Assembly: GCF_026151205.1 (NCBI RefSeq)
Contig: NC_087078.1
Span: 372,001 to 436,000, forward strand
Origin: Bolinopsis microptera
Lineage: Eukaryota; Ctenophora; Tentaculata; Lobata; Bolinopsidae
Direction of reading: 5' to 3'
Length of the DNA: 64,000 bases
Part shown: positions 1 through 64,000 of the stretch, piece after piece
How the letters are laid out: the number at the start of each line of letters is the position of its first letter
Numbering within the stretch: the first letter of the stretch is position 1
Made by a program: the position numbers and the translations under genes
Notes under the pieces: model-generated
Seen by the model: the letters and a program-made list of their open reading frames with translations, nothing else
The model's database searches: none
Told to the model about the DNA's origin: nothing

Positions 1-2805
1 ACAGTATTGTGTATGGATAAGGGGGGGGGGGGATAACTACACTTTCAATAAAATTCAAGTAAAATCGAAACGCTTTAATTGACTATGATTATCCTAAAAC
101 AAATTGAATTTATTTTTGAAAAACAAACCTTTCTTATAGAAGTAAGTAGTGTCATTTAGAGTACTCTGACTGGAACTAAGAAGTGCTGTACAGGCTAGGC
201 CTGCCAACATTGTGAGGAGCGACATAATGCTTTATGAAGGAGCAACGTATTGGCTACGTTACATAACAACAATCACTGTAACTATGGTTACAGGGAGTGT
301 AACAACGATGACTGGACTGACTGGACCATGACTGTCATTCTACGTAGGAGAGGTTCGGTTACTATTTGATTACTAAATGTTATGTAATATGTTATATAAT
401 AGAAACATATCAGTGCATTATTACCCTGACAGCAATCCTGGACGGCTGGTATATAACAAAATAGTTAGTTATTGAAATTAATTCGGAGTTTTGAGGTTTA
501 ATTCAAGTTTATAGAGACAATTCAGGGTGTCGAAAAAGTACGCTTGGTACGCAATGGGCACTGTCTAAAAATACAGTTATAAAAATAAACATTTAAAATG
601 TCGAAGTTGGGGGAAATACCACTTTCAGTAAATGGGTATAACAAAAGTGAATTTCTGAGAGCTGCTTCAATACTAAATGGGAAATAAGGTCGGTTGATAT
701 TTGTTCAAAAAGTGGAGCGTTTTGAAATCTTAGGGACTAGGTCAAGAGAAATTTCTGTCAGAATGGTAGCAATAAAGGTGCATTTGCAAATCATGCCGTA
801 TGAGAACTTTCTATGAAGAACTGTGGACGGCTACGGGGGATAAATTAAGTGTCACGTGATTCGAACTAATAAAACAATTATTTAATATTAATAAAACAAT
901 TATTTTAATAAACAACTGTGATTGGTTGCTGTTGGGTAAGTATGAAGGTTGCTACTTTGAAAGTTCATTGGAATTTGTGCGGGTGGTGCTATAAACAAAC
1001 TGGTTTGACGTTATAGCGAGGAAAGCTGTGGAAAATGTCAAATTGTGGTTTAGATAGAGCTATCACGGAATACCAAATTATTTATCACAACGAAAGGTAT
1101 AAACACTGTTCGTAAGTGTTTGTTACTCACTTTAACTAGCTACTGTAACTTAAACTGCATGATGACTTATTAGTGAATTGTAAGAGTTATATAGCTTATA
1201 TAAGTGTTTAAAAGTGACAACTTGCTGCATACTCTCGACTACTGATCATTTGTTAAAAGAAAAAAATGTGACTTATAAATCGAATTTTATCCAGCAATCT
1301 GTCAAAGTACAGTTACTGTACTACTACTATAGCTATAAACTGATGAGAATAAATCGGTAAGAGTAAGTTTAAACGTTTTACTGCGAGGGCCCCACGTACC
1401 GATTGGAGCTAAGTGGAGACGAATTAAAACATAACTGATTTTGGAATTTCCTCGAACAAAGCTTAAAACTAGCGGCCGGTTTCTAGTCTGTATTTTAATC
1501 AAAAAATGGTATTTTAATCAATACGAGGACAAGTCGTGACTCCAATAATAAGGGTTGAAGATACTGCAAACAAATAATGACCACGTGTCGCAATAATGGA
1601 CAAGATATATTGTTATATATTATTCTATTTGTTTTCCAACAAAATAATGGACAAGATCCTCATGCTGCCTCGTGCTGCCTTATCATTACTCCTTGACACA
1701 ACAACACGAAATTAATAATATAACATATTAACTAGTAAAATAACAAGTATTATTTTAACCAATGACCACGGAACAATTCTATTGAGGATAACAATACAGT
1801 TTATGAGAGTTATAAATAATTATATCAATTTTAGTACTAATATGAGTATTCTCAAAATATACCCACATTTCCATTAAAACAAAAGAATAACCGAGGATAA
1901 AATGATATTTTAATTACTTACCGCACTCTCGTAATAATACGAGTTAGGCTATAATATAAGACATTTCACTCAATCAAACGTTGACAAAGACTATTTAATA
2001 GGGTTTCATTGGTTCATTGTCGCTCAATGTGCGGACTAAGGAGCTATTGTAATCGTACTGAGAACTGTATTGTAACCATGGTAACCAGTGAAACTCCATT
2101 CAGTTTGCCTCGTTTAGGGTACCAACAAAAGTAAAAAATAAAAGCAAACGAATAAAAACTAATATGAATAGAAAATGAGAGCAGCCACAGGTACAATCTT
2201 GAAAAAGATAAGAATTTACTGCAAAAATGACAAAATAGAACACGGAGGGGTTTATAACGCTATATTAGAGTCATTATTGTAATGGTATATTATATTTAGA
2301 ATATAAATTTTGGTCTTTTAGGCATGGCCTTTTCTGTGGAAAACTTTGTTTTAAAATACTGAATGAGAACACCGTCGCAAAATAAAATTTGTATACCAAG
2401 TGCTAACAGATTTTTCCAGGCACATGCGATATATATACTGTATTAGAGTTTTAAAAATAAAAGCCGGCTCCGAGAGAGGAGTATCAAACTGCAATACAGT
2501 TTACTGGTTACCATAGTTACAAGGCGTTAACAGTAAAAGAAGTTCACAGGTTAATTGTTAACATTCTCATGATGAGAAATATCAATAAAACACGTGCACC
2601 TCACTTACCATGGTTATTGGTTACCATGGTTACACGTGCAACTAACCTTGTACTTTTTTCATATAAAGTCCGGTTGAAATGAATATAGCGGCAAAAGTGA
2701 TCACTTTCTTCACTGCAACAAAACCAGTGTTATTAACTTTCATCCCAACCTAAACCAACCTTGCCGCGCACAAGTGCATTTCATTACCTGAAATCGCGAA
2801 AAAAA
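1..2805. other. Non-coding, AT-rich region
   Basis: I see no supportable gene. The region starts with a G homopolymer near position 21 and holds dispersed X-box-like palindromes, for example at 2072-2085 and 2620-2633. Open frames are short and look random in composition. Confidence 0.6.
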
Positions 2806-2810
2806 AAACC

Positions 2811-3262
2811 AACCTACAAACCTTGCAACCTATAGACATAGTTACGATGGTAACAACCTACAAACCTTGCAACCTATAGACATAGTTACGATGGTAACAA
2901 CCTACAAACCTTGCAACCTATAGACATAGTTACGATGGTAACAACCTACAAACCTTGCAACCTATAGACATAGTTACGATGGTTACAAACCTTGCAACCT
3001 ATAGACATAGTTACGATGGTTACAAACCTTGCAACCTATAGACATAGTTACGATGGTAACAACCTACAAACCTTGCAACCTATAGACATAGTTACGATGG
3101 TTACAAACCTTGCAACCTATAGACATAGTTACGATGGTTACAAACCTTGCAACCTATAGACATAGTTACCATGGTTACAACCTAAAAACCTTGCAACCTA
3201 TAGACATAGTTACCATGGTTACAAACCTTGCAACCTATAGACATAGTTACCATGGTTACAGA
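2811..3262. repeat. Tandem repeat with GTTACGATGGTAAC core
   Basis: About a dozen units of roughly 32-44 bp contain CTTGCAACCTATAGACATAG followed by GTTACGATGGTAAC or GTTACCATGGTTAC. Two unit lengths alternate, depending on whether an extra AACAACCTA segment is present. The core is a one-base variant of the palindrome found throughout the window. Confidence 0.9.
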
Positions 3263-4425
3263 TGAGACACAGTTGCGCAGAAATAGGGACACATCTCTAC
3301 TTTATTAACAGTTCCCAGAAAGTCAGACTAAGAGGTGTTCTATTTAAAGAATAAATACTTAGTACTTAGACCTAGAGACAGTCTCTGAGCAGGGTATTAA
3401 CTATTATTACGAACTACAATGGTTGCACAGAAATAGACTAGAGATCATATTACCCTTGGTACTACTTAAACAAGAATTTCGCCGCGGTTAAACAACGCAC
3501 GATCAATTTTCCCTACGATGTACATGTAGTTGTACCATTAATTCTTTTGTGTGAAAAGTGTGACTGGAAAAATTGCAACATATTTACAAATTGTTTTTTA
3601 TAAATGAGTGGGATTTGTGCAAGGTAAAAACAAAAATTGACGATTTATTTGATCACTGTAGCGCTGCGCATTAACAATAAATAAATCCAGACAATTTTAG
3701 AAAATAACTTTGCGAAGGAGGAATTTCACTGTAATTAATAAACACATGGCTAGCGTCGCGCGCAGCATAACAAACGCTTTCTATACACATAATTATAGGG
3801 GAGTGGTCTAAATTGCGAAGGAGCAGCCGAGCAGACTTTTGTCATCAACGCAGGGCCGTCGGGCCACCTCATATATCCAAACCCGATTACTTATTCCCTA
3901 CGATCTTTTTGACTTCGGCAAAAGTAGGAAAAAATCTAGCAGCGCTGGTAAAAACCTCTCAGTCAAAACATAACACTTTAACACGATTACGAATCATCAA
4001 ATAATCATCGTAATGAAGAAACTGAACATAGAAGCATGTAGTACGATAGAACTGCCCTAAAAAAGTGCGTTATTAGTGGGTTCTGAATGTCTAATACAAT
4101 TTGTATGTCTAATACAATGAGATTTTTTGTTTCATCGTGTGTTACACCTCATTGTATTACAATGAGGTGTAACACTTACATGAGGTTAATAAAAGAGTAA
4201 TTGTGGGAGATATACTGATCTGCACTCATCAGAACAGTTTAGCTGATCTACACTGAACACTAGAACACGTCATGAGAAAATGTATTGCGCATTATTATTA
4301 TGGAAAGAGACTGAGAGGACAACCTTGTAGGTTTATAACCTACCAGGACGCGCGCCGAGTTGGACTCGTCGACGGTCCAATATTTGGAACAAATATTTTA
4401 CGAGTATCACCCGTTAAGGACGACC
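3263..4425. other. Non-coding, with a short perfect hairpin
   Basis: No gene is seen. A hairpin of about 37 bp at 4139-4175 pairs GTGTTACACCTCATTG with CAATGAGGTGTAACAC. It may be a small foldback element, but I could not define a target-site duplication. Confidence 0.5.
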
Positions 4426-4429
4426 CCGC

Positions 4430-5330: not shown

Positions 5331-5516
5331 ACACTCCTCCCTCTCCAAAGACAGAAGTAAAAATACCATGGTTAAACTCCTCCCTCGCCAGAGACAGAAG
5401 TAAACATACCATGGTAACCATGGTTACACTCCTCCCTCTCCAAAGACAGAAGTAAACATACCATGGTTACCATGGTTACGCTCCTCCCTCTCCAAAGACA
5501 GAAGTAAACATACCTA
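5331..5516. repeat. Tandem repeat with CCATGG palindromes
   Basis: Four units of about 50 bp carry CTCCTCCCTCTCCAAAGACA followed by GAAGTAAACATACCATGG and one or two X-box-like palindromes (GGTAACCATGGTTAC). The last unit lacks the palindrome. Confidence 0.85.
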
Positions 5517-7799: not shown

Positions 7800-7862
7800 T
7801 CATAGCTAAACACTAGTGTTACTATAGCAACACTAGTGTAACTATAGTAACACTAGTGTTAC
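7800..7862. repeat. AACACTAGTGTTACTATAG short tandem repeat
   Basis: Three near-identical units contain GTTACTATAGCAAC or GTAACTATAGTAAC, which are X-box-like. A related piece, CACTAGTGTTACTATAGCAAC in part, occurs at 8363-8383. Confidence 0.7.
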
Positions 7863-8750
7863 CTACCAATTATCTAGTTCTATCAAAGTGGAGAGAAAGC
7901 TCAGAGATGAGTAAAATATTTGACTGTACCAAACTGAAGGAGAACTGGATTGGTAAAAGAAATGATTTATTGAAGATTATATTTGAAGAATACATATAAT
8001 AAAATCACCCCAATTACCAGTGGAACTAGTTTAATTTTCGGGTATAGGACACTAATTGCCACTAACTGACCGCTAATAGACGAACTATCTGACGCGGGTC
8101 CGGGACTCTACGCCGGACCCCCGGACTATCTGACGCTAAATAATTACTAACTCAGACCACTGGAATACCTGTGAAATAACTGTGACCACTAAGCCATGAC
8201 CTATCAGAGCTGAGTTATTGTACTAAACTAATGCTACCATGGTTACACTTATAGCTAAACAATCAGTAATAATGAATATATATTAATTAAGTAAAGGTAG
8301 CTACGAGTATTTATTATAGTCACAGCGTATCTAGGTTCGTTAATCACAACTCACGGTATTTTCACTAGTGTTACTATAGCAACACGTCTAGTTACCATGG
8401 TAACTCACAGTATTTTCAGTGGAGCAGAGACTCAAGATGTGGACTATGTGACTCAGCTAGTAACCATGGTAACCAGCTATGAGAGTGCAGCCCTCCTAGC
8501 TTGGGAGGCTGATTGTGCTCTCAGGCTCAATACTGGCAGTTTGGTATTTTATTAGAGCATATTATAAAGTTATAATAAAGTTATAGGCGCCAGTAAATAT
8601 TGTTGAAAGAAAGGTATTATTTATAAGCTCACATAACATACATACATACGGGCTAACCAGCGAAGAATTGCTTCACTAAACAACATAATTGTAAAATTTC
8701 TGTAATAAGAAAAGGTAAACACGATGAACTTAAATTTTCCGGATTGGATC
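7863..8750. other. Non-coding stretch with X-box palindromes
   Basis: No gene is visible. Clear palindromes GTTACCATGGTAAC (8391-8404) and GTAACCATGGTAAC (8460-8473) lie here. Confidence 0.5.
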
Positions 8751-11069: not shown

Positions 11070-14000
11070 GAGAAGACTCCTTATATTCCAACATTATAAA
11101 CATTATAAACTCCTCGGATACTGCCGGCGTTATGTGTGTTATAAATGAATCTAGATACGTCTGCGTGCCGTGTCTATTGTAGGCCATGTCGAGAGCAGTG
11201 GCGTAACTAAGGTACGGCGCTGCGGGGCCATTGGTCGAGAGGGCGGATCAGCTAATCAGAAAATCAGGAACACTGCGCACAAACAAAACGATATATAACG
11301 ACACTTAGACAGATTGAGAATTAAACACAGTAAGAAGACACAGACAATTCAACTGTGTTGGGGTTTCTAGTCATCGGTATTACAAAAACGTATCTATTAA
11401 ACACAGTAAATATGGTGGTGTATCTAATTACATCGCAACATGCACGACACAGTTTTATATATTGGATAACGTTTTTGTTTTCGATAAATAATAAAAAACT
11501 TATTTTTTTGTGTTTATCATTATAACAGCTTAATTTTGATTTTAATTGATTTTAAGATAAGGAACGATTTTAAGGTTTAGATTTAAATGCGAAGAAAAGT
11601 TAAGAAACGTAAGTTGAGAAATACAAATGTTATAATCGTACTGTTTATGAAGGAGCACTGTTGGAAAAGATAAAATCGTGCTCATTATGTCGAAAATCTA
11701 GTTAAAAACTGAACAGATCAGGAAATTGCGATCAGTAATGAGTTTTACATTTTTACACTGCGGATTATGGGCAGATAACCCTAACCCTAATATATGCTCC
11801 AGCCACCATGACTAACATAATAACACTTTCTGTTTAGCAGGGATCCATTAATCATGATCGTTAAGAGAAATATTTAGATATTTCTAGCTGTGTTTCATCC
11901 GGATATAAGATTTAGTAACGGTAATCAGCGGTTAAGAAACGGTTATGAGTCAGCCATTAACCGGGTTACCATGGTCACGTGCCATTAACCGGGTACTAGT
12001 CAGATTAATAACCGGCTGCGGATGACGAATAACAAAACTTATCGATTATCACACTCATATTTTAGAAGTAAAAACTTTCGTGTAATTGTTTGTAAGCGGC
12101 AAGTAACTAAGCATCCGTTAGACTGTGACTCCTACTTAGTTTCCCAATATGTCACATGTGAACATGTGAACATGTGACAGCTGGACTATCGATTAAACAA
12201 GGTGTCCGGTAAAACAAACCTATTGAAACCTTATAACACGTAAAATGAAACCGAAACACTAAAACAAGTGAGCAAGTGCTGACTCAAGGTGGTGTGTAAA
12301 ATGCATAAATATTATTATACTGGTTTGTGTGATCTGTAATATGGCTATGGTAGAATTACCTTCATATTCACAATGTATGGATAATGTTACCATGGTTACC
12401 CACCCCTATGAGATTCTATTTTTAGAGAAGGAAAGTACCAAAAATAGAGAAATAATTCATATTTCATTGCTATAACAGATAACTAATAATTGTAGAAAAT
12501 GCCTTATCAATTTTAAATGGTTCTTGATGTATGACTTGAGTTTATTCTACAACAGGACCATAACACAGAGAAGAGGAGGAAAAGACAGGGCACAGAGAAG
12601 AGGAAGAGAAGCTACTACTACTACTACTACTAGCCCACAGATCGGCTAAATGGGTGATCAGTACGCAGCTCCCGAATACAGAGCTGCTCTCCTCCGATCC
12701 GGCGTGTGAGTAACCATGGTAACACTTACACACTTATACACTTACACACTTACAAACTTACACACTTACACACTTCTTATTCGTTACTTAGAGTTGTAAT
12801 TTTAGTTTGCTTGGATTAATTTAAATAAGGCTTCCAAGTTTTCGGATACTCCGCAAAATCTTTGATCTATATAATACGTATTGTGTAAAATTCGTAAAAA
12901 AAGTGTATTGCTAAAACTTCGCACGCGTTCCCAATACTTGCGCAAATATTTAGTTTAAATAGCGTGCGGAAGACTTTTAAAAAACTTTGCAGAGAATTTG
13001 TTGAGCCGCGCGCATTAAATGTTTGAATGAATAATTATAGTATCGTCTGCAAATTGATAACTATAATTCAATAATTCTGATGACAGTGATTTTGCAGGAA
13101 CCTTAAACAAACCGGTTAAAGCAATCACTACATTGACAGAAGCACGTTTTACAATGAACAAATCAAGGAAATAATAGCATTAAATATCTTTTATCAGACT
13201 TCATGGATACCAGGTAACCAAGGTAACCAGGTAACCAGGTAAGCAGGGTAACCAGTGGATACTTCAATTCTAAAATTTAACTGCGATATCCTTGCTCTCG
13301 TACCACTGTGAAGTAGTGTATACGTAGTGTTGCTATGGTGACAAGAGTATAAGTCAGGTCGGGGCTAGCAACCGACTAATCAATCAATCATACTGTAACA
13401 GGTTGGTTATTGTAATTGGTTGGCTGATCTTTGTCCAAACATTTATTAAATCGATGCTAATTTATGTAAAATCTAATTTATCAACACAATAAAAGAATAA
13501 AGATCGCTTAAGCCACGCCGAGGGGCACACAATAAAGATAGCTTAAGTCACGCCGTAGGGCACACAATACAAACAGCTGATTAACGAGCCAGCTATAGTG
13601 GGTAATAGGTACACAAACATTAACCCTCATGTGATATTGATTAATTCTTATTGTACATGCTGTACTTGTTAAGTCTCCCTAATAACCCAGCCTCAAAACC
13701 CCGTGCTATCTGAATACCCCGTTAACTTTAAGTAGGTAGGCAAGAGTTCACAATATCTGAATATCATTCAGCGTGCCTTATGCTCTTATGCTAACGTTAT
13801 TAACGTTACTAATTATAATATAGTAATATAACAGCCATGCGAGAAGACACAAAATTCTATTTATTGCTAATGATTATTCTTGCTACGGATTATATAAATG
13901 GTGCAATCTATAATTAGTGAAACTGAGTGAGGTGGTAACCATGGTAACTATGCAAATAACAATAATACCAGGTGTTATAAGAACTTTCTGACTTTCTGAA

Positions 14001-14504
14001 TAGTAATACTAATAGTAGGTACAATAATAGTAGGGCAACAGAAAGTTGCCAATAATACTATAAAATTAGCTAAAGGGTAAATACTCATCATCCCAGGCTC
14101 GCACATGTGCTGAGTGTTATAACCTTATAGAGGGGAGGAAGCTAACAGTGTTGTTTGATAAATCAGTTTTTACCGCATCAAAACTATAATAATAACTTAT
14201 ATCCCTCTGTACATGTAAAAGTTGCGGTCGTTAATTTCAATATAATAACTTTACTGTTGACCGCAACAGTAAAGTAATGCCATTACCAATTACCATATCT
14301 GGCATTCGCTCAATCGAAACGTGGAAACGACCAGTGATCGTTGACAGTGGCGTAACGAAGTAGTAGTAAGTAGTAAGTAGTAAACCCGCGATGGGTTTGT
14401 CCCTAAAATTGAACAAATTAGGTGATTTTAGAGGATACGGTGTTAAAGTTGTGGTATCATTAAAATGGTACAGAATAAATACGGATTTATATCACCTTAA
14501 TAAC
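11070..14504. other. Non-coding region
   Basis: No gene is supportable. The stretch contains X-box palindromes at 12386-12399, 12710-12723 and 13935-13948, a short GGTAACCAG run near 13211-13250, CACTTACA repeats near 12722-12770, and a duplicated phrase near 13500-13565 (AAAGATCGCTTAAGCCACGC and AAAGATAGCTTAAGTCACGC). Confidence 0.55.
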
Positions 14505-16322: not shown

Positions 16323-16554
16323 CTGGCGGATACATAATCTCGGCACTTAATCTGTAGGTTATGCGACACTTAACTACTTGGTCATCTGTCTACAGAGTGA
16401 TCTGCCAATACCCTGATCAACAAGGGAGACTTTAGTTCACATTGTCTGTATTGCAGCGTTACCATGGTAACACTGCTAGTTACATTGTCTGTATTGCAGA
16501 CACAGTTGTTTTTGTGTCGGTTGTTTCCTAGTTCAGCTGTGTAAACAGACTGCA

Positions 16555-16995: not shown

Positions 16996-19203
16996 GCGTT
17001 CTTTATTTACATCACTTATAGTTAGGGATTTCACTTTGAGAATTAGCATTTCAATATGCTGCTTAGCAGCAAGTTAGCAAGTTAGCAAGTACCGGCTATT
17101 TTCTCATCATTAACACGAAGCATTAGAAGGTCTAAAATTGCAAAAATGCGCTTTGAAATGTTGTTCCGACTTCCGTTCAACAGAATATTAGAATTAGATT
17201 GGCGTTCAGGCAGATAAATATAGTTCAGGGCAAATAAATATTCAACACCTATTTATGTAAGATAACATTCTGTTTGCAAACTGCAATAACATCGCCTCAA
17301 TATTGCAACAAAATTAAAGCTTTAACTCGGCGAGTGGTAGCATGTATGTATGTGGTTAATCTGTCAGTCAATAAGCAAAATACTTATCCAAAAACGATTT
17401 CATAATAACTTATTAAAGCATGTTTTGTAATTAAATTTCGCGTGTCAAATATTTTTTGAGTGCGACAACTTTTAGGTCGCGTGCAGATTTTCTTCAGTGC
17501 AGTTAAATTTAACATGTCGAGATGGTATCCCAGAACTGATTACTAACCACGCAGTCAAAAACCTGTCATCATTACAGGCAGTCACTAACACACAAGGCTG
17601 TAGTCACTAACACACAAGGCGTGGATTGTAGTGTTGCTCTACGAGTACTCTACTACAACACTATACTCTAATCCTGTAATCTGGCAAACTACTAAGACAT
17701 AAGAGTAGAATGTAAGAATGTTAGAGTGCAGACGTCCCGACGTCCGCGTAATGAATTTTGCCAGGAACAATCCAAGATGAAAATATTTAAAGAATGTCTC
17801 ATAATTTTACTTTGGGTTGGATAACATAGCAGTAGTGGCTTTTCAGATCCTACGGACGTGAGGTTAGTGAGATTAGTGAGGTTAGTGAGGTTAGTGAGGT
17901 TAGTGAGGTTAGTGACACTAACATACTACTTCAAGTAGTCTTCACATATAATGATACTCAATGAGAACTATCGTATTATTATTATGAAGGGTCTCAATAA
18001 GGGGTCTCGACTGCCTAGGCGTCAAACCTTGGCAGTCGGTAGTTTTCCTCTGGCCCGGGATCAGCTGACCCTAGGGACCAGAGGGTAAAGGTGTAGAGAC
18101 TATGTGTATCTACAAATCTTTCGAGGTTGTTTTTACAAGAGACAGGGCTTGCTACGCAAGGAAAGAAAACCGGGAGAAACAATCACAAATTATACAAATA
18201 AATATTATAAAACCTAGCAAAAAGAAATTCAAATAATCCTACACTACTACAAATGTTATTATTATTATTATGTAGAACCCTTTACAGTTCCGTGGAAGAC
18301 TACAGGACACTAAACCTATTACAGAATGAATTATCAGTATCTTAACATAACATCGGCACTTTCTATCAGATTTAACAAAGTCGGCTTCTCAAATAATTAC
18401 TCCGAAGAAAGCATATTTTATATTTAGAGAGTTTCCAAGTAACGCATAGACAGTGGAAACCTTTAAAAAAGAAACCTCTCATAAAATTGATAATGAAAAT
18501 AAATACTTTTTCGGTATGTTTTTACCACGTTGACTGGAATTTTCACACATGTAAAAAAAGAAGTGATATATTGTGTCTCATGAGTTTGGTAGCCATGGTT
18601 ACTACCCCGTACACTCTCCCGACCCTTCGTAGCTGTGATTATCAGCACTGTCTCCTTGAAATGGTGTTTACCAGAAGTAGTAGTGAAGTAATACCAGTGA
18701 AGTAGTAGCGAAGTAATACCAGTGGAGTTCTGCTGTTTTTAGTTTAAACTATTGTCGATAATTTAGAGGGCTTTTCTGATACGAACTGGCACAGAATTAT
18801 ATATTAGCACTTAGTAGTGTAGTAGAGTTATTCTGTACATTTCTGCAGTTTCTCTAAGTATCCAGGATGGATGGGTGATCACTACTTATAGGTACAGCTA
18901 CTAATATTGTAAAATCCGGATTGGAGTATTATTTATGAGTCGCATTGTTGTAATGTATTCTGTGTAAAATTATCTTTATCCCGGTATCTACTAATATTGT
19001 TACAAAACTAAATACAGCCAACACGAGAAAAAAATAAATCAATCACGCATTCTTCATAACTACTATTACTACCCCATAATACTCTGACGTTGAGTTTGGT
19101 AACCATGGTTACTACCTCATTAGTCAATTTGAAAACTTTATTAGTAATCAATTTTCTCTTTAAAAGGTTAAAAGGTGCGATGAGCTCCTACTCTTCCTTT
19201 GTA
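16996..19203. other. Non-coding region
   Basis: No gene is supportable. A short GTTAGTGAG tandem repeat (about seven units) lies at 17860-17915, and an X-box palindrome at 19099-19112. GTAGTGAAGTAATACCAGTG is duplicated near 18680-18725. Confidence 0.5.
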
Positions 19204-19367: not shown

Positions 19368-19953
19368 ACGTTAAGTCGTTAAACAGGCAAATCTGAATGA
19401 TAGGTAGGCAGGGGTGCTTTCACCACTCCTCAGCTCGTGCCCTAACATTTTCCATCTAGCCTCCGCGATCCTCCCTGTCTGTTTCTACAGGTTCTCTTAC
19501 TAATAATACTCACAACAAAGTATCAGTTTAAGAAGCTGATTAGGGTTAGTAACCATGGTTACTGGGGGGTGAGGAAGCGTCCTTGACTGCTCTGAATCTA
19601 AGACAACTGTAAAATCGGAGGAATAATAAAGACGGATAATTATGCAATCTTAGGAGAAATACTTCGATAAAACAAAAGCTTTGAGGTATTCCGGCAACAC
19701 TTCCACTTGCCTAACTATTGTCAAAGTGTCAACACTTATTAGGACCTGTAACTGCAGGCTATACTTGTCACCTTCCCGGCTATTTCACTATTTCTGAGCA
19801 GAGTGTTCAGTAGTACCAACTGAACACTGAGCTGAGTGTTCAGTAGTGGACAACTACTCACAACTACTGTTGTTGGTCGTGCATAAAATGTAGTGTCGAA
19901 TAACAGATACTAAAAGATGGAACTACAGCATTACCAAGTTACCAGTGTTTATC
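19368..19953. other. Non-coding stretch
   Basis: No gene is seen. An X-box palindrome, GTAACCATGGTTAC, lies at 19549-19562, and a GAGTGTTCAGTAGT duplication near 19798-19848. Confidence 0.5.
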
Positions 19954-32147: not shown

Positions 32148-32372
32148 CAACGGTTACCTGGTTACCTGGTTACCTGGTTACCTTGCTACCTTGCTACCTG
32201 GTTACCTGGTTACATGGTTACCTGGTTACCTGGCTACCCGGTTACCCGGTTACCTGGTTACCTGGTTACCTGGTTACCTGGTTACCTGGTTACCTGGCTA
32301 CCCGGTTACCTGGTTACCTGGCTACCCGGTTACCTGGTTACTTTGCTACCTGGTTACCTTGCTACAGGTTGC
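32148..32372 (-). repeat. GGTTACCT minisatellite
   Basis: About 28 units of the 8-bp GGTTACCT, with GGCTACCC and TGCTACCT variants. It is the complement of the AGGTAACC arrays at 32934-33018 and 34399-34640. The open frames rich in LPGYLVTW are translations of this repeat. Confidence 0.95.
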
Positions 32373-32933: not shown

Positions 32934-33018
32934 TAGGTAACCAGGTAACCGAGTAACCGAGTAACCAGGTAACCAGGTAACCAGGTAACCAGGTAACCAG
33001 GTAACCAGGTAACCAGGT
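32934..33018 (+). repeat. AGGTAACC minisatellite
   Basis: About ten units of AGGTAACC with two GAGTAACC variants. Same family as 34399-34640 and, in complement, 32148-32372. Confidence 0.9.
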
Positions 33019-34398
33019 AAAATATGCACTAGGCAATACTGTACCATTGCAAAATTATGTGAGCCGCGCATACAAAATATACTTAATTGTATTGTAGCTT
33101 AGGTAGCTAAGCAGCCCCCTTATATTATGCAATGTTAGTGTTTTGCCCCCCCCCCCCCCCCCAATGTTAGTGTTTTGCGCGCACAGGTAACAGAACGCGT
33201 GGAAACTAGTAGTGTTACCATGGTAACAGAACGCGTGGAAAGTTTATCCAAATTATAATCATCTTTTTTTCAGTGTGGCGGATAGATGGCAGATTCTGGA
33301 CTACATTAACAACAGCAGGTAACTATGGCAAAGTTATTCTCATGTAGTATCGTGTAGCAGGTAACTAAAAATACAAAAGCAACGTTTAAATGCAGTGGAT
33401 GTAAAATTGCACTTTTTACCAATTTCAAAACTGTTTCGTATCATTCGTGATTCAGTGTTATTCGCACTTTTCTCTATTTTACGAAATTTGCAAATTTTGT
33501 GACACAACTCTGCATAATTTGTGTCAATTATGTAATAGATCTGAAATGTATGGAAGCGTTTTGTAAAACATTTCCCTTGAACGTTTTTTATTATTCTTTG
33601 ACATACGTTGCATGCCACTTTCCGCCACAACGTGTATCAAATTATTCTAAACTGAACAATCATGTGACTTGTGTGAGGCACGTTAACTTGGTAATTATGG
33701 CAACGTTATTAATATTATAAACAGAGCATCATGTCTGATTGAAGAAAATTCTTCAAACTTTGCCGCACATTTTGCGAAGAATGTTGCAATCAAGCCCCAA
33801 TAATTGCTATATTTTCCGCACAGCTCACTCTTGCTGCACATAAAGCAAATGTAGGCAAATGCAGAATCACATTATTCGCAAACTTTTACCGCACATATTA
33901 TTGCATTTGGACAGGAAGGGCCGGAAACAGACAATGTTAGAATCCTTCGTAAATAAACTATTGAGAGCCTCAAATTATTTGTTGTATATACTTATATAAG
34001 TATATGTTGTCTTTCGGTGACTAAAACAACACTACTACAATGTATAGTGTATTATACTGTATATATATCAGCGTAATTAATATATTAGTTATGCTATTGC
34101 TAACATCGATCTAAGATAGCAATGCTTTAACTCCATGCACCAGCATCAGTGCCCGATATAGTAGAAAAGGGCTACTTTTCTGCTACAGATTTGGCGCCCC
34201 AACAAATCATTGAACAGAATAGTATAATATAAAAGGATTCTGAATATGAATAGGGCCTTGTTAGCAACGTCCTATACAAATGCGTTACCATGGTTACAAG
34301 AGTCCTATACAAATGCGTGTTTTAAATATTGACTGCAGAGAATCCCTGTAACAGCATCTGCTAATAAGGACCTACTTGTTCATGTACTATAATCTTAT
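33019..34398. other. Non-coding region
   Basis: No gene is recognised. A C homopolymer of about 18 bases near 33144-33162 lies between two direct copies of AATGTTAGTGTTTTGC. X-box palindromes lie at 33214-33227 and 34284-34297. TGGTAACAGAACGCGTGGAA is partly duplicated near 33186-33240. Confidence 0.5.
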
Positions 34399-34640
34399 AA
34401 TGGTAACCAGGTAACCAGGTAACCAGGTAACCAGGTAACCAGGTAACCAGGTAACCAGGTAACCAGGTAACCAGGTAACCAAGTAACCAGGTAACCAGGT
34501 AACCAGGTAACCAGGTAACCAGGTAACCAAGTAACCAGGTAACCAGGTAACCAGGTAACCAAGTAACCAGGTAACCAAGTAACCAGGTAACCAGGTAACC
34601 AGGTAACCAGGTAACCAGGTAACCAGGTAACCAGGTAACC
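34399..34640 (+). repeat. AGGTAACC minisatellite
   Basis: About 30 units of AGGTAACC with occasional AAGTAACC. It is flanked on both sides by copies of CTACTTGTTCATGTACTATA (34372-34391 and 34639-34658), so the array sits between short direct repeats. Confidence 0.95.
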
Positions 34641-34658: not shown

Positions 34659-35717
34659 AATGGGCTCAAAGATTTGTTAAGTGGGTCCGTTGTGTCACAT
34701 GGTTTGACTACTTATAAATAATATAACGTTAATATAACGTTGTACCTTTTTTACTTGCCTGAATTCCACAAAATTTTCAAAATATTTTAACAAAATTGTA
34801 TTTTCAAAGCCTCTTCGATATGCAAATCAACTTTAAACATAATATTATAACAAAACCTCTCTTAACATATGATTACATAGCACTAGCCCCACACTGAATG
34901 TCAGAAAGGGAAACATTGTTTTAAAATGCTCAGATGCTTATTAGCTTATTGCATATGACAGAAATCTAGGGAATAAGTTTGTAAGGTTGGAATAATCTAA
35001 AATGATGTCCATTCCATTATATTTCTGGTTCTAGGTTTGATCAAATCTACTGAAGTGACCAGACTATCCCACGAATCATGTTTTTCTGTGATTTGAGATT
35101 TGAGATTACAGAACCACTCTACCAGTGGTTCTGATACCTAATTGTGTTATTAACTACTTAAGTACAATTATTGTGGTGTCAACAAAAACTCCGAAAGGTT
35201 GAAGCACGAACATGCGATTTAGAAACATAGTTGCAGATTTAAAACTGACCAAGTACAGACAAAATAAAAAACCACAAACAAGGTAGTGGTGACACCATGC
35301 ACTATCACCATGGTGACACCATGCACTCTAGTAAAGTAGTAAACAAGTTCCCACCGTCGCGCCTACCTTTAGTAGTCTCCACAAAGTTGTCAGATTAAAT
35401 TAATTGCAAAGAACAATTGGACTGTCTATCGTTTATTTTTCTCTAACAAAACTTGCTGATACTTTCTGTAGTCTGTAGTTTCTGTATCCCCCCCCCCCCC
35501 TTTCTGTTATAGTCCTGCAACATTCCACGAACGTACTCTCATGGAAATTTCACGTGCGACAGGTTGCTAGGTGACAGTTGGTTGCTAGGTGACACTTGTT
35601 TCCCGATACTACTCAAGTCAGGTTGCTAGGTGACAGAATGCTGACAGTTTAACTGTTTAAGAAATATAAAGTCTGAAAGAGAACGTTTAGCGTGTCCGCA
35701 TAGTGAGGAGCGTTCAA
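34659..35717. other. Non-coding region
   Basis: No gene is visible. The region has a C homopolymer at about 35489-35500 and a GTTGCTAGGTGACA repeat (three copies, 35562-35632), another RFX-half-site-like phrase. GATTTGAGATTTGAGATTAC and a small CCACTctaCCAGTGG hairpin lie near 35090-35130. Confidence 0.45.
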
Positions 35718-35840
35718 CGTTAACCTGGTAACTATGGCAACGTTAACCTGGTAACTTTGGCAACGGTAACCTGGTAACTATGGCAACGTTAACCTGGTAA
35801 CTATGGCAACGTTAACCTGGTAACTATGGCAACGTTAACT
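35718..35840. repeat. GTTAACCTGGTAACTATGGCAAC tandem repeat
   Basis: Five 23-bp units. Each contains GTAACTATGGCAAC (one has GTAACTTTGGCAAC), a good X-box-like site. Confidence 0.9.
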
Positions 35841-36092
35841 TGTTTCACTTAATAACCTGAATCTTAAAGTCGCCGTTGTGAACAGCGCTATCATTATAAC
35901 AATATGTTATTATGAGAGATGAGACCCTACAAGTACTTCACCTGGCACTAAACTGCATTCCGACTGGATTCCTCTCTTTCACAATAGTGAGAGAGAAAGA
36001 AGTCTGTTTAGCTTAGTCTTATAAAAGACTAACACCAGAAGAAGGTTGCTTTAATTGTTGGTGCTTACTAATCACCAAATATTTCGTAGCTT

Positions 36093-36187
36093 CTCGTCAT
36101 ATATTATACTCGTCACCATAGCAACCTCTCGTCATATATTATACTCGTCACCATAGCAACCTCTCGTCATATATTATACTCGTCACC
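36093..36187. repeat. 35-bp tandem repeat with GTCACCATAGCAAC
   Basis: Nearly three units of CTCGTCATATATTATACTCG followed by TCACCATAGCAAC. The second half is X-box-like. Confidence 0.85.
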
Positions 36188-37484: not shown

Positions 37485-37498
37485 GTAACCATGGTAAC
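37485..37498. promoter_or_regulatory. X-box palindrome just before formin start codon
   Basis: GTAACCATGGTAAC ends 15 bases before the ATG chosen for the formin. It could lie in the 5' UTR or proximal promoter. Binding is inferred. Confidence 0.35.
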
Positions 37499-40742: not shown

Positions 40743-40895
40743 CTGTTTTTAAATGATAATCCTATGTTTAGATCATATTATGATGTAGTGTTACCATGGT
40801 AACAAACCATTTAAAGTCATGTGACCATGATAACATATATACCATATAAGGTAGTGTTACCATGGTAATACACCATAAAATATAGAACATTTCAG

Positions 40896-40987: not shown

Positions 40988-41231
40988 GTAAGTTACCATG
41001 GTAACTAATGCTTACTCTAATGAAAGAAAAAGCATGATTAGTGTTACTTTTAGACCAGGCAAGAAGTAAACAAAATGAAATTTTACTGCAAATAACACGC
41101 CGGAATGGAACACAAATTATTGAAGCTGCAACCAATATGTTTATCAGATACCTACATTATTTAGATATTTGAAACAATTGAAAGTTATTCGCTCTAATTC
41201 ATCAAAGACACCGGGATGTGAGTTTAACGAC

Positions 41232-41953
41232 AGGTTACATATACTGCTACTAGGTTACTAGCTGGTTACTAGGTTACTAGCTGGTTACTAGGTTACTAGC
41301 TGGTTACTAGGTTACTAGCTGGTTACTAGGTTACTAGCTGGTTACTAGGTTACTAACTGGTTATTATGTTACTAGCTGGTTACTAGGTTACTAGCTGGTT
41401 ACTAGCTGGTTACTAGGTTACTAACTGGTTATCATGTTACTAGCTGGTCACTAGGTTACCAGCTGGTTACCAGGTTACTAACTGGTTCCTAGGCTACTAA
41501 CTGGTTACTAAGTAACTAGCTGGTTACTAGGTTACTAACTGGTTACTATGTTACTAGCTGGTTACTAGATTACTAGCTGGTCACTAGGTTACCAGCTGGT
41601 TACTAGGTTACTAACTGGTTACTATGTTACTAGCTGGTCATTAGGTTACCAGCTGGTTACCAGGTTACTAGCTGGTCACCAGGTTACTAGCTGGTCACCA
41701 GGTTACTAGCTGGTCACTACGTTACTAGCTGGTCACCAGGTTACTAGCTGGTCACTAGGTTACTAGCTGGTCACCAGGTTACTAGCTGGTCACTAGGTTA
41801 CTAGCTGGTCACCAGGTTACTAGCTGGTTACTAGGTTACTAGCTGGTCACTAGGTTACTAGCTGGTCACCAGGTTACTAGCTGGTCACTAAGTTACCAGC
41901 TGGTTACCAGGTTACTAGCTGGTTACTAGATTACTAGCTGGTTACTATGTTAC
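41232..41953 (+). repeat. CTGGTTACTAGGTTACTAG minisatellite
   Basis: About 720 bp of a roughly 19-bp unit with TTACC/TCACC variants fills most of formin intron 3. It ends about 20 bp before the next acceptor. The same repeat follows exon 5 at 46679-46980. Confidence 0.95.
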
Positions 41954-46678: not shown

Positions 46679-46980
46679 AATATGGTTATTAGGTTACTAG
46701 CTGGTTACTAGGTTACTAGCTGGTTACTAGGTTACTGGCTGGTTACTAGGTTACTAGATGGTTACTAGGTTACTGCCTGGTTACTAGGTTACTGCCTGGT
46801 TACTAGGTTACTAGCTGGTTACTAGGTTACTGGCTGGTTACTAGGTTACTAGCTGGTTACTAGGTTACTAGCTGGTTACTAGGTTACTGGCTGGTTACTA
46901 GGTTACTGGCTGGTTACTAGGTTACTAGCTGGTTACTAGGTTACTGGCTGGTTACTAGGTTACTAGCTGGTTACTAGGTT
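46679..46980 (+). repeat. CTGGTTACTAGGTTACTAG minisatellite, second array
   Basis: About 300 bp of the unit seen at 41232-41953, directly after exon 5. It ends in a partial copy of the exon 5 end and its donor (46981-47003). Confidence 0.95.
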
Positions 46981-47356
46981 ATTCCAGGCTTTACTGCAGG
47001 TAATATTATTTAACATTTATAAAAAGTTGAAGTAATTAATATATTAATTATGTATTAAGTTTTGTCACATAATAATAGCTGTAATATTAAATAAAGATCT
47101 CTTAAATTTGATATTTATCTCCGTAATTTAGCTAATGACAAGAGTGAAGAGATATTGGCATAAACCTCAGTGAAGTTTTGACATTTAGTTGTTTGTTTTA
47201 GGGAAAGATAAGACTTGTTTAGAACTTTTATTAACGTTTTTAAAATAAAAAATTCAACCTCCTCATCCTCTTCATAAAGTTTGTATTTTAATCTTTACAA
47301 AAGAAACTTTTGTAAAAATTAAAACTTACGAGGACCCTCTGCTGCATTATAAAGTG

Positions 47357-47637: not shown

Positions 47638-48674
47638 GGGACCATACTTACTAGTTACCATGGTAACACTGCTAGTTACCATAGTAACACTACTAGTTAC
47701 CATGGTAACACTGCTAGTTACCATAGTAACCTGCTAGTTAACATGGTAACACTGCTAGTTACCATGCTAGTTACCATGGTAACACTGCTAGTTACCATGG
47801 CAACACTGCTAGTTACCATGGCAACACTGCTAGTTACCATGGTAACACTGCTAGTTACCATGGCAACACTGCTAGTTACCATCGCAACACTGCTAGTTAC
47901 CATGGCAACACTGCTAGTTACCATGGCAACACTGCTAGTTACCATGGCAACACTGCTAGTTACCATGGCAACACTGCTAGTTACCATGGCAACACTGCTA
48001 GTTACCATGGTAACACTGCTAGTTACCATAGTAACCTGCTAGTTAACATGGTAACACTGCTAGTTACCATGCTAGTTACCATGGTAACACTGCTAGTTAC
48101 CATGGCAACACTGCTAGTTACCATGGCAACACTGCTAGTTACCATGGTAACACTGCTAGTTACCATGGCAACACTGCTAGTTACCATCGCAACACTGCTA
48201 GTTACCATCGCAACACTGCTAGTTACCATGGCAACACTGCTAGTTACCATGGCAACACTGCTAGTTACCATGGCAACACTGCTAGTTACCATGGCAACAC
48301 TGCTAGTTACCATGGCAACACTGCTAGTTACCATGGCAACACTGCTAGTTACCATGGCAACACTGCTAGTTACCATGGCAACACTGCTAGTTACCATGGC
48401 AACACTGCTAGTTACCATGGCAACACTGCTAGTTACCATGGCAACACTGCTAGTTACCATGGCAACACTGCTAGTTACCATGGCAACACTGCTAGTTACC
48501 ATGGCAACACTGCTAGTTACCATGGCAACACTGCTAGTTACCATGGCAACACTGCTAGTTACCATGGCAACACTGCTAGTTACCATGGCAACACTGCTAG
48601 TTACCATGGCAACACTGCTAGTTACCATGGCAACACTGCTAGTTACCATGGCAACACTGCTAGTTACCATAAAG
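47638..48674. repeat. Array of X-box-like 21-bp units
   Basis: About 1.04 kb of GTTACCATGGCAACACTGCTA, roughly 45-50 units, most identical. Variants such as CCATAGTAAC and CCATCGCAAC are rare. A marker segment (CCTGCTAGTTAACATGG) recurs about 300 bp apart, showing a higher-order duplication. Each unit contains one full X-box palindrome. All frames are open on both strands, because 21 is a multiple of three and the units lack stops; these are not genes. Confidence 0.95.
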
Positions 48675-59971: not shown

Positions 59972-60121
59972 GTAATACAATTTACTGTAATTAATTAATG
60001 ATAAATTTAAATAAAGTCAGCTGTCTGACTTTTAAAACTATTCAGTAAGGTTCATTGATTCAAACTTACCCCCTAAAATATTCAGTAAATATTCAGTTAA
60101 CTTATGTTCCCTCTGCTAACC

Positions 60122-60730
60122 CCTGTGTTACCATAGTAACCAGTTCCCCGTGTTACCATAGTAACCAGTTCCCCGTGTTACCATAGTAACCAGTTCCCCG
60201 TGTTACCATAGTAACCAGTTCCCCGTGTTACCATAGTAACTATAGTTCCCCGTGTTACCATAGTAACCAGTTCCCCGTGTTACCATAGTAACCAGTTCCC
60301 CGTGTTACCATAGTAACCAGTTCCCCGTGTTACCATAGTAACCAGTTCCCTGTGTTACCATAGTAACCAGTTCCCCGTGTTACGGTAGTAACCAGTTCCC
60401 CGTGTTACCATAGTAACCAGTTCCCCGTGTTACCATAGTAACCAGTTCCCCGTGTTACCATAGTAACTATAGTTCCCCGTGTTACCATAGTAACCAGTTC
60501 CCCGTGTTACCATAGTAACTATAGTTCCCCGTGTTACCATAGTAACTAGTTCCCCGTGTTACCATAGTAACCAGTTCCCCGTGTTACCATAGTAACCAGT
60601 TCCCCGTGTTACCATAGTAACTAGTTCCCCGTGTTACCATAGTAACCAGTTCCCCGTGTTACCATAGTAACCAGTTCCCCGTGTTACCATAGTAACTAGT
60701 TCCCCGTGTTACCATAGTAACCAGTTCCTT
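60122..60730. repeat. 25-bp tandem array with GTTACCATAGTAAC
   Basis: About two dozen units of CAGTTCCCCGTGTTACCATA plus GTAAC. Each has one X-box-like palindrome with A/T-variant centre. It lies in the intron before exon 9 and ends about eight bases before the acceptor. Confidence 0.95.
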
Positions 60731-62384: not shown

Positions 62385-62447
62385 ATGGTTACGATGTTGA
62401 ATTTAGATGAGATTGATGAACTTTTCCAGTCCAAAAAATCTGTTAAG
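62385..62447 (+). CDS. Formin, exon 14 (FH2 continued)
   Basis: 21 codons: MVTMLNLDEIDELFQSKKSV, the expected helix after the FH2 lasso. Acceptor TATTCTCAG, donor AAG/GTAAGA. About 330 more FH2 residues should follow, but none are visible on this strand before the window ends, so the gene continues outside. Confidence 0.8.
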
Positions 62448-63048
62448 GTAAGATTTTAATTGTTATCGTTATTTAACTTGCTGTCCGTTAATACTTAATA
62501 CTTTAATATAACGTATTAATATCTCTAGTCGTATTGTATTTTGTTGCTATTTTTGTGATAAATGAAACTACAAGTTAGAAGTTAAGTTATCAAGCATCTT
62601 AAATAGTCTCAAATATGAATACCATGCAATTCAGGTTCAAATATCATTAAATAACACTTCTCAAATAGATACAGTCGATATATTACAAAATAAATAACAC
62701 CATAAAAACGTTAACTAAAATGGAACAATGTCTTCCGGAAACCCTTTCCTTCTTAATAAAAGTTCACAAACGATAAAAACAATCAACAACGCAACATACA
62801 TAAATAACATTACCTTAATGGTAGTACTACTATGGCAAAGTCACCATGGTAACCTTACTGCTAAGTTACCATGGTAACCTTACTGGTAAGTCCACAGTTA
62901 AAAGAAACCTGAGCATCACATCGCACGGCGACAAAAATGAATTTACAGCCGTTCAGGCTGTATTCTCGGAATAAATGAGCTAAACTAGAACTAAAGCTGG
63001 AACTAGAACTAAACAAGAGCTAAAATAGAACTAGATCGTCCTTATAAC
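62448..63048. other. Formin intron and 3' flank of the neuropeptide gene
   Basis: Non-coding. X-box sites lie at about 62840-62853 and at 62865-62878. TAGAACTAAA-type phrases repeat at 62985-63033. The neuropeptide transcript must end here. Confidence 0.5.
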
Positions 63049-63733
63049 TTAACCAGCCCGCGGTCTGAAGAAGAATCCTGCTAACTCGTCCTGTGTGCTC
63101 TCAGTTCCATGTTCCACTGCACGTTTAACGTTGTCATGGTAACTCTCGGCGTTGTCATGGTAACTGTTATAGAGCTCAGCAGATCGTTTTCCGCCAGGTT
63201 TGAAGAAGAATCCAGCTGCTGCATCTTCAGAAGATTCTGTTCCTTGCTCACTTACACCGCGTTTGATGTTGTTATGGTAACGTCTCAGCGTTGTTATGGT
63301 AACGGTTCTCCGCGCTTCTCCCTCCCCTCGGTCTGAAGAAGAAAGCATCCTGGGGTCCCTCAGTTGCACTTTCAGCTACCGCTCTCTTTGCTTTGATCAA
63401 ATGTAGGGGGTTTTTCGGCTTCATGAAGAAGCCTCTTGCAGCAGCAGCAGCTTGCAGCTTGTCAACCACTTGTTGAAGTGAGTTAGGTAGCTCAGCAGCT
63501 GGTTGAAGTGGTAGCTCAGCGGATCTCTTGCCGTATTTTTCTGGTTTGAAGAAGAAAGCTGCAGCTCTGTCCTCTGAAGTCTCCGTCCCCTCCTCTCCGG
63601 CTGCTCTCTTGTGTTCAGGTTTCCAGAAGAATCCAGACTGGTTGTCTATCGCTAGAATGCTTCCAGCTGAACTGATCGGAGCAGCATCTAGCTGTGAGAT
63701 GAGGGCTAGGAGGAAAGCAGGAATCAGGAACAT
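63049..63733 (-). CDS. Neuropeptide precursor (FFxKP/FFxRP peptides)
   Basis: The minus-strand start ATG (63733) opens a signal peptide (MFLIPAFLLALISQLDAAP). Copies of a core FF(F/W/M)(K/R)P follow: GFFWKPEHKR, AFFFKPEKYGKR, GFFMKPKN, AFFFRPRGGR, GFFFKPGGKR and a terminal GFFFRPRAG. Most are bounded by KR or R cleavage sites. Several have Gly before the site or at the C-terminus, giving amidated peptides. The spacers are acidic and repeated (GTETSED, GTESSED, GTESTQD). A one-base excess near 63283 shifts the frame: the first frame runs from 63733 to a stop at 63272, and the last two copies are in the other frame. I recognise no named family. It acts as secreted signalling peptides, receptor unknown. 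Confidence 0.8.
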
Positions 63734-63814
63734 GTCGTCAATATATCCAGTAGAGATAGTAAAGTTGCTTGATAGTTGTTATCGAAACTGATGGTTTTCC
63801 ATCCTGCCCCCTCA

Positions 63815-63822
63815 TACTTATA
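63815..63822 (-). promoter_or_regulatory. TATA box of the neuropeptide gene
   Basis: On the minus strand TATAAGTA lies 82 bases upstream of the start codon. A start site about 30 bases downstream (near 63788) would give a 5' UTR of about 55 bases. Predicted from sequence only. Confidence 0.5.
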
Positions 63823-64000
63823 CCTTCCCGCACGGCTGGACGGGCCAGTGCCCTGCCCAATGGGCCGTCTCTTTGTAATGCACGAAAATACCCCGCCTCT
63901 CCGAGGCCCAGTTCCCGGACCTGCAGCTGCAGCTAATTGATTGCAACAACCTGGATGGTGCATGTTCATTAGCACTACGTCAAGTTTACTATAATTAGCA

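What the first reader, a model, noticed from the sequence alone, without database searches (positions are those of the whole stretch)
1..64000. Window-wide expansion of an RFX X-box-like palindrome
GTTACCATGGTAAC and close variants (GTAACCATGGTAAC, GTTACCATAGTAAC, GTTACCATGGCAAC) fit the known RFX X-box, an inverted repeat of GTTRCC and RGYAAC. Dispersed copies include 2072, 2620, 8391, 8460, 9640, 12386, 12710, 13935, 16458, 19099, 19549, 33214, 34284, 37485, 40790, 40992 and 62865. A 14-mer should almost never recur in 64 kb. It is also the core of at least six unrelated minisatellites (2811, 5331, 35718, 36093, 47638, 60122), and the half-site GGTAAC/GTTACC is the core of several more (32148, 32934, 34399, 41232, 46679). 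Seen: the motif and its excess. Inference: a short palindromic sequence that spreads and either creates RFX sites or titrates RFX.
Basis: partly seen in the sequence, partly recalled or inferred. Interest (0 to 1): 0.85.

Follow-up and report, generated by a model that had tools for sequence, protein, structure and literature searches.

The report
RFX-site words seeding minisatellites genome-wide
A 13-14 letter DNA word that matches the landing site of RFX proteins, the switches of cilia genes, occurs thousands of times in this animal genome, forms the heart of many different tandem repeats, and differs between two copies of one region through short insertions, which suggests that protein-binding sites may drive their own multiplication.

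Summary
The motif is real and far beyond chance. GTWACCATGGTWAC occurs 28 times in the window, 13 outside tandem arrays (Markov expectation 0.00), and 4,816 times in the 264.65 Mb genome against 3 for reversed controls, arrays included. It obeys RFX X-box grammar: permitted changes (GTWACTATAGTWAC) number 1,477, equally large forbidden ones (GTWATCATGATWAC) 16. The genome encodes at least two RFX DNA-binding domains. An X-box is the core of 18 of 52 window arrays (14 distinct units). Against an inverted paralog of window 10.2-33.7 kb, 7 of 47 indels hold or adjoin an X-box (reversed pattern 0), two as clean empty sites. It is not one mobile element: flank composition is at background beyond 3 bases, and flanking duplications, frequent in the window, are not in excess at 26 C1 sites. 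Perfect palindromes are under-represented, which argues against hairpins. Some interior copies ride in repeat families. Placement is patchy: dense near the start of C1 and here, but 1 of 49 arrays in a fresh 700-kb sample. Best reading: X-boxes are minisatellite cores and insertion-prone sites, probably through RFX binding (inferred). RFX titration was not tested.

The parts
2072..2085 (+). isolated X-box GTAACCATGGTAAC
2620..2633 (+). isolated X-box GTTACCATGGTTAC, next to a partial copy at 2604
2810..3260 (+). minisatellite, units with GTTACGATGG (8 of 11) or GTTACCATGG (3 of 11)
5333..5514 (+). minisatellite with one or two X-boxes per unit
7809..7862 (+). minisatellite, core GTTACTATAGCAAC
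8391..8404 (+). isolated X-box GTTACCATGGTAAC
8460..8473 (+). isolated X-box GTAACCATGGTAAC
11953..11994 (+). X-box GTTACCATGGTCAC (11965) between 14-bp direct repeats; the paralog has a single copy and no X-box
12386..12399 (+). X-box GTTACCATGGTTAC; one base differs in the paralog and breaks the pattern there
12710..12723 (+). X-box GTAACCATGGTAAC, present in both paralogs, at the edge of an ACACTTAC array that is longer in the paralog
13209..13255 (+). 8-bp array, X-box GTAACCAGGTAAC
13935..13948 (+). X-box GTAACCATGGTAAC; the paralog has only the half-site GGTAAC (12-bp difference)
16439..16499 (+). X-box GTTACCATGGTAAC (16458) between 18-bp direct repeats, shared with the paralog
18584..18608 (+). 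25-bp segment with X-box GTAGCCATGGTTAC, absent from the paralog
19099..19112 (+). isolated X-box GTAACCATGGTTAC
19549..19562 (+). isolated X-box GTAACCATGGTTAC, shared with the paralog
32152..32359 (-). (GGTAACCA)n array, 13-bp X-boxes
32935..33020 (+). (GGTAACCA)n array
33186..33241 (+). X-box GTTACCATGGTAAC (33214) formed by a 16-bp insert between 20-bp direct repeats; empty site in paralog L024
34269..34318 (+). X-box GTTACCATGGTTAC (34284) between 17-bp direct repeats
34402..34640 (+). (GGTAACCA)n array flanked by a direct repeat of about 23 bp (read by eye)
35287..35327 (+). X-box-like ATCACCATGGTGAC between 17-bp direct repeats
35562..35598 (+). two-copy repeat, core GTTGCTAGGTGAC
35715..35839 (+). 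minisatellite, core GTAACTATGGCAAC
36092..36187 (+). minisatellite, core GTCACCATAGCAAC
37485..37498 (+). X-box GTAACCATGGTAAC, upstream of the first ATG (about 37514) of the open frame that runs to 39838
40785..40877 (+). short tandem repeat with GTTACCATGGTAAC
40992..41005 (+). isolated X-box GTTACCATGGTAAC
41248..41953 (+). minisatellite, core GTTACTAGGTTAC
46683..46981 (+). minisatellite, core GTTACTAGGTTAC, flanked by a 20-bp direct repeat (GGCTTTACTGCAGGTAATAT, read by eye)
47651..48670 (+). minisatellite, core GTTACCATGGCAAC and variants
60121..60728 (+). minisatellite, core GTTACCATAGTAAC
62838..62892 (+). two-copy repeat, GTCACCATGGTAAC and GTTACCATGGTAAC

Best explanation
The motif is an RFX X-box: two half-sites GTNRCY in inverted orientation, 1-2 bp apart. 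In this genome (probably a ctenophore) it is a common nucleus of insertion and tandem duplication. Shown: massive excess, X-box grammar, shared core of otherwise different tandem arrays, and presence or absence of whole sites through short indels (two of them with 14- and 20-bp duplication of the target) between diverged paralogs. Inferred: RFX dimers on the DNA make the site prone to breakage or fork stalling. Repair duplicates flanks and copies X-box words from other, perhaps RFX-bridged, X-box loci. Because only sites that RFX still binds stay active, copies keep the RFX consensus while everything around them differs. Independently, repeat families that carry an X-box add copies in chromosome interiors.
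For: Genome counts against reversed controls. Grammar: 1,477 permitted (control 10) against 16 forbidden (control 3) double transitions; spacer 1: 9,616 (control 54), spacer 3: 691 (control 64). RFX domains at C9 and C4; the C9 one matches hRFX1 (1dp7), 41 of 61 aligned residues identical. Arrays: 24 of 99 (window plus 300-kb set) hold a perfect X-box against 0 for the reversed pattern and 0.04 in shuffles; the top 6-mers of those arrays, counted without a pattern, are GTAACC (18 of 99, expected 1.2) and GGTAAC (16 of 99, expected 1.3). Paralogs: 7 of 47 indels hold or adjoin an X-box, 0 for the reversed pattern; clean empty sites at 11953 and 33186. Sharp boundary: flank positions -8 to -4 of 45 isolated sites at background composition. 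Fixed core columns vary less than non-core columns in 10 of 11 arrays tested. In the window 7 of 36 dispersed sites have a spanning direct repeat of 14 or more, against 2% of random positions (three of the 7 are small tandem repeats).
Against: No binding data. No relative genome to tell gain from loss. Flanking duplications are not general: repeats of 12 or more at 3 of 26 isolated C1 sites against 15% of random positions, of 10 or more at 7 of 26 against 17% (that background includes arrays). The prediction that arrays at 700 kb would be X-box rich failed: 1 of 49, shuffles 0.03. Outside arrays the random samples hold few copies with at most one change, and no more near contig starts than inside: 1 (300 kb), 1 (700 kb), 3 (6 Mb), 0 (10 Mb), in 34-46 kb each. 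GTTGCCATGGCAAC, the G form of the site, is rare (123), with no site in the first 1 Mb of C1. The grammar test compares counts inflated by arrays and repeat families.
Confidence: 0.4

Rival explanations
1. Regulatory selection: RFX sites are favoured near genes (in an animal rich in cilia), and some of them expand by ordinary slippage.
For: X-box grammar is kept; 37485 lies just before an open frame; fixed core columns vary less than others in 10 of 11 arrays.
Against: 7 of 47 indels between paralogs involve X-boxes, which selection on random indels can hardly supply; arrays of tens of units; clustering near the start of C1. Gene neighbourhoods were not surveyed.
Confidence: 0.2
2. Sequence-driven amplification without RFX: abundant GGTNAC words act as microhomology for slippage and template switching, so that common words become commoner.
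For: (GGTAACCA)n arrays are numerous; the asymmetric form GTAACCATGGTAAC, preceded by G, is a direct repeat of GGTAAC with spacer CAT, and the form is the commonest; paralog differences at 13931 and 20446 look like half-site duplications.
Against: Different arrays use different X-box spellings and two spacers; permitted against forbidden variants 1,477 to 16; no shared sequence beyond the site.
Confidence: 0.25
3. Copies are carried by transposable elements or satellites that contain an X-box.
For: Family i, units about 305 bp apart, 77 matches listed with 40 of 1,041 candidates scored; family ii carries 8 of 14 interior GTWACTATAGTWAC sites that I fetched; GTTGCCATGGCAAC pairs about 1,243 bp apart.
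Against: Only 4 of 26 sites in the first 2.6 Mb of C1 were put to family i by eye; flanks of the isolated window and C1 sites are unrelated.
Confidence: 0.1
4. Hairpin or cruciform formation by a palindrome drives the duplications; protein binding is irrelevant.
For: Dyad symmetry of the motif.
Against: Perfect palindromes 786 and 212 against 3,818 for the asymmetric form (equal sums expected if the W positions were free); mean stem of 20 X-box arrays 3.9 against 3.2 in shuffles, much as for other arrays (3.9 against 3.4).
Confidence: 0.05

Closest known systems
RFX X-box (GTNRCC N0-3 RGYAAC)
   Same: Half-sites, spacer, R/Y degeneracy; RFX genes in the genome
   Different: Thousands of copies, with A more often than G at position 4 in the forms counted, in arrays and repeats as well as isolated
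Minisatellite core sequences (human Jeffreys core and the PRDM9 hotspot motif; recalled, no call)
   Same: Different arrays share one short core; two arrays differ in length between paralogs
   Different: The core is a conserved RFX binding site and not a PRDM9 or chi-like motif; hotspot activity untested
Transcription-factor recombination hotspots such as M26/CRE in fission yeast (recalled, no call)
   Same: A transcription factor's dyad site as the proposed origin of recombination; CRE words also seen in arrays here
   Different: Here inferred from repeats only, in an animal, for RFX

Membership tests
RFX X-box | inverted half-sites GTNRCC / RGYAAC | tested here: met
   consensus read in passages of PMC10530576 and PMC5752003
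RFX X-box | spacer of 0-3 bp | tested here: met
   outside window arrays, spacer 2 commonest, then 1; 0 and 3 rare; genome spacer 1 9,616, spacer 3 691. Spacer 4 matches (44) lie inside arrays only
RFX X-box | purine/pyrimidine freedom only at the consensus positions | tested here: met
   positions 6 and 9 against 5 and 10 only: 1,477 permitted, 16 forbidden; counts include arrays
RFX X-box | host has an RFX protein with the DNA-binding domain | tested here: met
RFX X-box | bound by RFX | not testable with these tools
   needs EMSA, DAP-seq or CUT&RUN
short mobile element (MITE/SINE-like) | common sequence body beyond the motif | tested here: not met
   90 half-flanks of 45 sites: background composition at -8 to -4, weak bias at -3 to -1 (P 0.003-0.05)
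short mobile element (MITE/SINE-like) | target-site duplications | tested here: not met
   in excess among window sites (7 of 36 with 14 or more, 2% at random) but 3 of 26 C1 sites with 12 or more against 15% at random: not general
short mobile element (MITE/SINE-like) | empty sites in a homologous copy | tested here: met
   11953 and 33186 clean; 13931 and 18584 also differ by presence/absence; polarity by parsimony only
minisatellite family with a shared core | one core in otherwise unrelated arrays | tested here: met
   18 of 52 window arrays (14 distinct units), 6 of 47 at 300 kb, 1 of 49 at 700 kb, 0 of 58 interior
minisatellite family with a shared core | length variation between copies | tested here: inconclusive
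   two arrays differ in length between paralogs (12722, 16693); no population data
recombination hotspot motif | excess of meiotic breaks or crossovers at the motif | not testable with these tools
   none

The most novel reading that the evidence does not exclude
RFX binding itself is a mutational drive: bound X-boxes are broken or stalled in the germ line, and repair writes further X-boxes by copying from other bound sites, so that a transcription-factor recognition site multiplies as a selfish word without any element around it. Other dyad sites (E-box CACGTG, CRE) may do the same in this genome.
Probability: 0.2. Interest if true: 0.85.

Novelty: new variant of a known kind. Interest (0 to 1): 0.62.

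Why it matters
If binding by an ordinary transcription factor seeds minisatellites and new binding sites, then regulatory sites can multiply by mutation bias rather than by selection. That would change how excess motifs are read as evidence of function, and it would add an RFX-based case to the PRDM9 and M26 types of hotspot (recalled). If the animal is a comb jelly, as I infer, it swims with cilia, so RFX should be a central factor there (recalled).

Tried and rejected
Discrete mobile element with target duplications: attractive from window sites (11953, 16439, 33186, 34269), rejected as a general rule after 26 fetched C1 sites and the flank test. Hairpin drive: disfavoured on counts. 'Subtelomeric': the first 1 Mb of C1 holds 8 of 25 GTTACCATGGTAAC loci (expected 1, Poisson P 7e-6), but the 1.2 kb fetched at each of 6 contig ends hold at most one TTAGGG, the last 1 Mb of C1 holds none of those loci, and the fresh 700-kb set gave 1 of 49 arrays; I say only 'near the start of C1, and this window on C7'. 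X-box arrays at 300 and 700 kb (7 of 96) against interior (0 of 58): Fisher one-sided 0.03 by arrays; 4 of 20 against 0 of 20 loci, 0.05; the flagged window was left out of that test. My prediction, noted before the second sample, that the 10-Mb set would be rich in CACGTG and GACGTC arrays gave 1 and 1 of 23 (shuffles 0.10 and 0.07); CACGTG was instead frequent at 700 kb, 7 of 49. Papers (listings only): X-box + RFX + minisatellite 0; ctenophore + minisatellite 2; RFX + tandem repeats + X-box motif 1; four minisatellite-hotspot terms 0; the 14-mer itself 0; subtelomeric + minisatellite + RFX 0; staggered/duplication/filler terms 2; ctenophore + RFX + motif 10, 9 listed. None is on this subject by title and start of abstract; most subscription papers are not in that library.
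Full report
Observation. The listed copies are in the sequence. Outside tandem arrays the window holds 13 GTWACCATGGTWAC and 22 GTNRCCNNRGYNAC against 0.00 and 0.40 in 60 Markov-2 simulations. With up to two changes there are 34 dispersed sites; thirty palindromes made from shuffled halves gave a mean of 2.1, but one of them, WTACCAGCTGGTAW, gave 38. Genome-wide exact counts: GTTACCATGGTAAC 786, GTAACCATGGTAAC 3,818, GTAACCATGGTTAC 212, GTTGCCATGGCAAC 123; reversed controls 1, 2, 0, 0. Counts include arrays. On C1, with sites closer than 1 kb merged, 49 GTTACCATGGTAAC sites are 25 loci, 8 of them in the first 1 Mb and 17 in the rest; the 100 listed GTAACCATGGTAAC sites, a capped list that ends at 2.7 Mb, are 50 loci, 33 of them in the first 1 Mb.

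Genome. G000 has 264.65 Mb in 232 contigs, and the window is C7:372001-436000. The 11 large contigs whose length I saw measure 16.3-26.2 Mb, and hits reach 14.7 Mb on C12 and 15.7 Mb on C13. Passages of PMC10232365 give Bolinopsis microptera 13 chromosome-scale scaffolds, 97.23% of the assembly, and about 254 Mb; the start of the abstract of PMC11797021 gives Mnemiopsis leidyi 247.97 Mb and a karyotype of 13. A ctenophore is therefore my inference; no sequence test was made.

It follows RFX grammar. PMC10530576 and PMC5752003 (passages) give GTNRCC N0-3 RGYAAC, the first also the monomer site GTTRCY. Changing positions 6 and 9 (permitted) leaves 1,477 sites (control 10); changing 5 and 10 (forbidden) leaves 16 (control 3). 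Half-sites one base apart: 9,616 (control 54); three apart: 691 (control 64). The asymmetric form outnumbers both perfect palindromes, and the form in which neither half is RGYAAC (GTAACCATGGTTAC) is rarest. PF02257 matches at C9 and, apparently in two exons, at C4; the C9 domain aligns to human RFX1 1dp7 at E 2.3e-24 with 41 of 61 identical residues.

It is the core of many arrays. With best-scoring non-overlapping TRF arrays of period 7 or more, many of them with only about two copies, 18 of 52 window arrays hold a perfect GTNRCY-N1-2-RGYNAC. Four of the 18 share the 8-bp unit and two share a 19-bp unit, which leaves 14 distinct units. For window plus ten 5-kb samples at 300 kb the count is 24 of 99 (reversed pattern 0, shuffles 0.04); the six from the samples lie in 3 of 10 loci; for ten samples at 6 Mb it is 0 of 35. 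A pattern-free count of 6-mers in the 99 units puts GTAACC and GGTAAC on top. Fresh samples gave 1 of 49 at 700 kb and 0 of 23 at 10 Mb, so the enrichment is patchy. Outside arrays these samples hold 1, 1, 3 and 0 sites with at most one change (300 kb, 700 kb, 6 Mb, 10 Mb; 34-46 kb each), which shows no excess of isolated sites near contig starts. In 11 arrays that I chose among those with an X-box, fixed core columns vary less than non-core columns in 10 (Wilcoxon P 0.003).

How copies arise. Window 10194-33736 has an inverted paralog at C7:212.6-231.8 kb; the 15 blocks aligned are 94-99% identical over 10,937 bases. Part of window 32.3-33.0 kb lies there in the other orientation. Of 47 indels of 5 bp or more (5 lie at block edges), 7 have an X-box within or within 13 bp, 0 for the reversed pattern. 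Clean empty sites: at 33186 the paralog has one GGTAACAGAACGCGTGGAAA where the window has two with CTAGTAGTGTTACCAT between them; at 11953 one copy close to GCCATTAACCGGGT where the window has two around TACCATGGTCACGT. At 13931 the paralog has a bare half-site; 18584 is a 25-bp segment lacking in the paralog; at 20446 and, less cleanly, 17626 the paralog has extra X-box words; at 12722 only the array beside a shared X-box differs. By exact alignment position 5 X-boxes are shared, 8 are in the window only and 7 in the paralog only; the last two numbers include shifts within the 13209 array and an aligner split of the shared site 12710. One shared site (16841) carries two changes that keep the consensus; two sites differ by a point change (12386, 33319). 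Deletion between direct repeats could mimic an empty site, so polarity is parsimony only.

What it is not. Isolated copies (45 sites, 90 half-flanks) show background composition at -8 to -4 and weak bias at -3 to -1, so there is no element body. Dropped before that count: 5 of the 26 C1 sites (four in family i, one in an array), the 14 interior sites, 10 of the 20 stretches (five in family i, five arrays or clusters), and window sites in arrays or with a change. Flanking direct repeats of 12 or more span 3 of 26 isolated C1 sites and 0 of 14 interior ones, against 15% of random positions; of 10 or more 7 of 26 against 17% (this background includes arrays). In the window itself 7 of 36 sites have repeats of 14 or more against 2% of array-free random positions. 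Interior copies are often repeat-borne: family i with units about 305 bp apart, family ii at 8 of 14 sites by eye, and GTTGCCATGGCAAC pairs about 1,243 bp apart.

Mechanism. Random indels would hardly ever hold an X-box, so 7 of 47 points to mutation bias rather than to selection alone. Because different arrays use different permitted spellings, two spacers and different flanks, the common factor is best sought in the protein that reads them, RFX. I propose binding-dependent breakage or fork stalling, with repair that duplicates flanks and copies X-box words. Binding, breakage and copying are all inferred. Word-driven template switching without RFX is the strongest rival.

Verdict. I searched the held open-access library only and saw no report of it in those listings.

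Noticed in passing
L035, L039, L041, L042, L087, L090-L093, L103: Other arrays have E-box (CACGTG) or CRE (GACGTC) cores: CACGTG in 6 of 35 arrays at 6 Mb, 7 of 49 at 700 kb, 1 of 23 at 10 Mb, 0 of 47 at 300 kb (shuffles 0.1-0.3); GACGTC in 5 of 35, 1 of 49, 1 of 23 and 0 of 47.
   Followed up: partly
window 33130-33178: A run of 15 extra C between two 17-bp direct repeats (CAATGTTAGTGTTTTGC); the paralog L024 has the single copy, so insert-with-duplication is not limited to X-boxes.
   Followed up: partly
window 32152-32359 and 32935-33020: (GGTAACCA)n arrays sit where the paralog C7:212.8-215.7 kb changes orientation.
   Followed up: no
window 14490-15148: A repeat of about 660 bp with about 38 near-full copies at 92-96% listed, lacking in the C7 paralog: probably a young insertion.
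   Followed up: no
L012, L018-L020, L023, L064, L067, L068, L072: Repeat family i (by eye): an X-box between CACGTG-rich flanks; units about 305 bp apart at several places.
   Followed up: partly
L073-L076, L078, L080, L084, L086: Repeat family ii (by eye): most copies carry a double X-box GGTAACCATGGTAACTATAGTAACC; dispersed in C1.
   Followed up: no
window 63275-63778 (-): Open frame with repeated FF(M/F/W)KP-like peptides between basic residues, like a neuropeptide precursor; no Pfam match.
   Followed up: no
window 19997-20153: Interstitial CCCTAA (telomere-type) array of about 26 copies.
   Followed up: no
window 46683-46981: The array lies close after what looks like an exon end (CTGCAG|GTAATAT), and its flanking 20-bp repeat duplicates that possible splice donor (by eye).
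   Followed up: no
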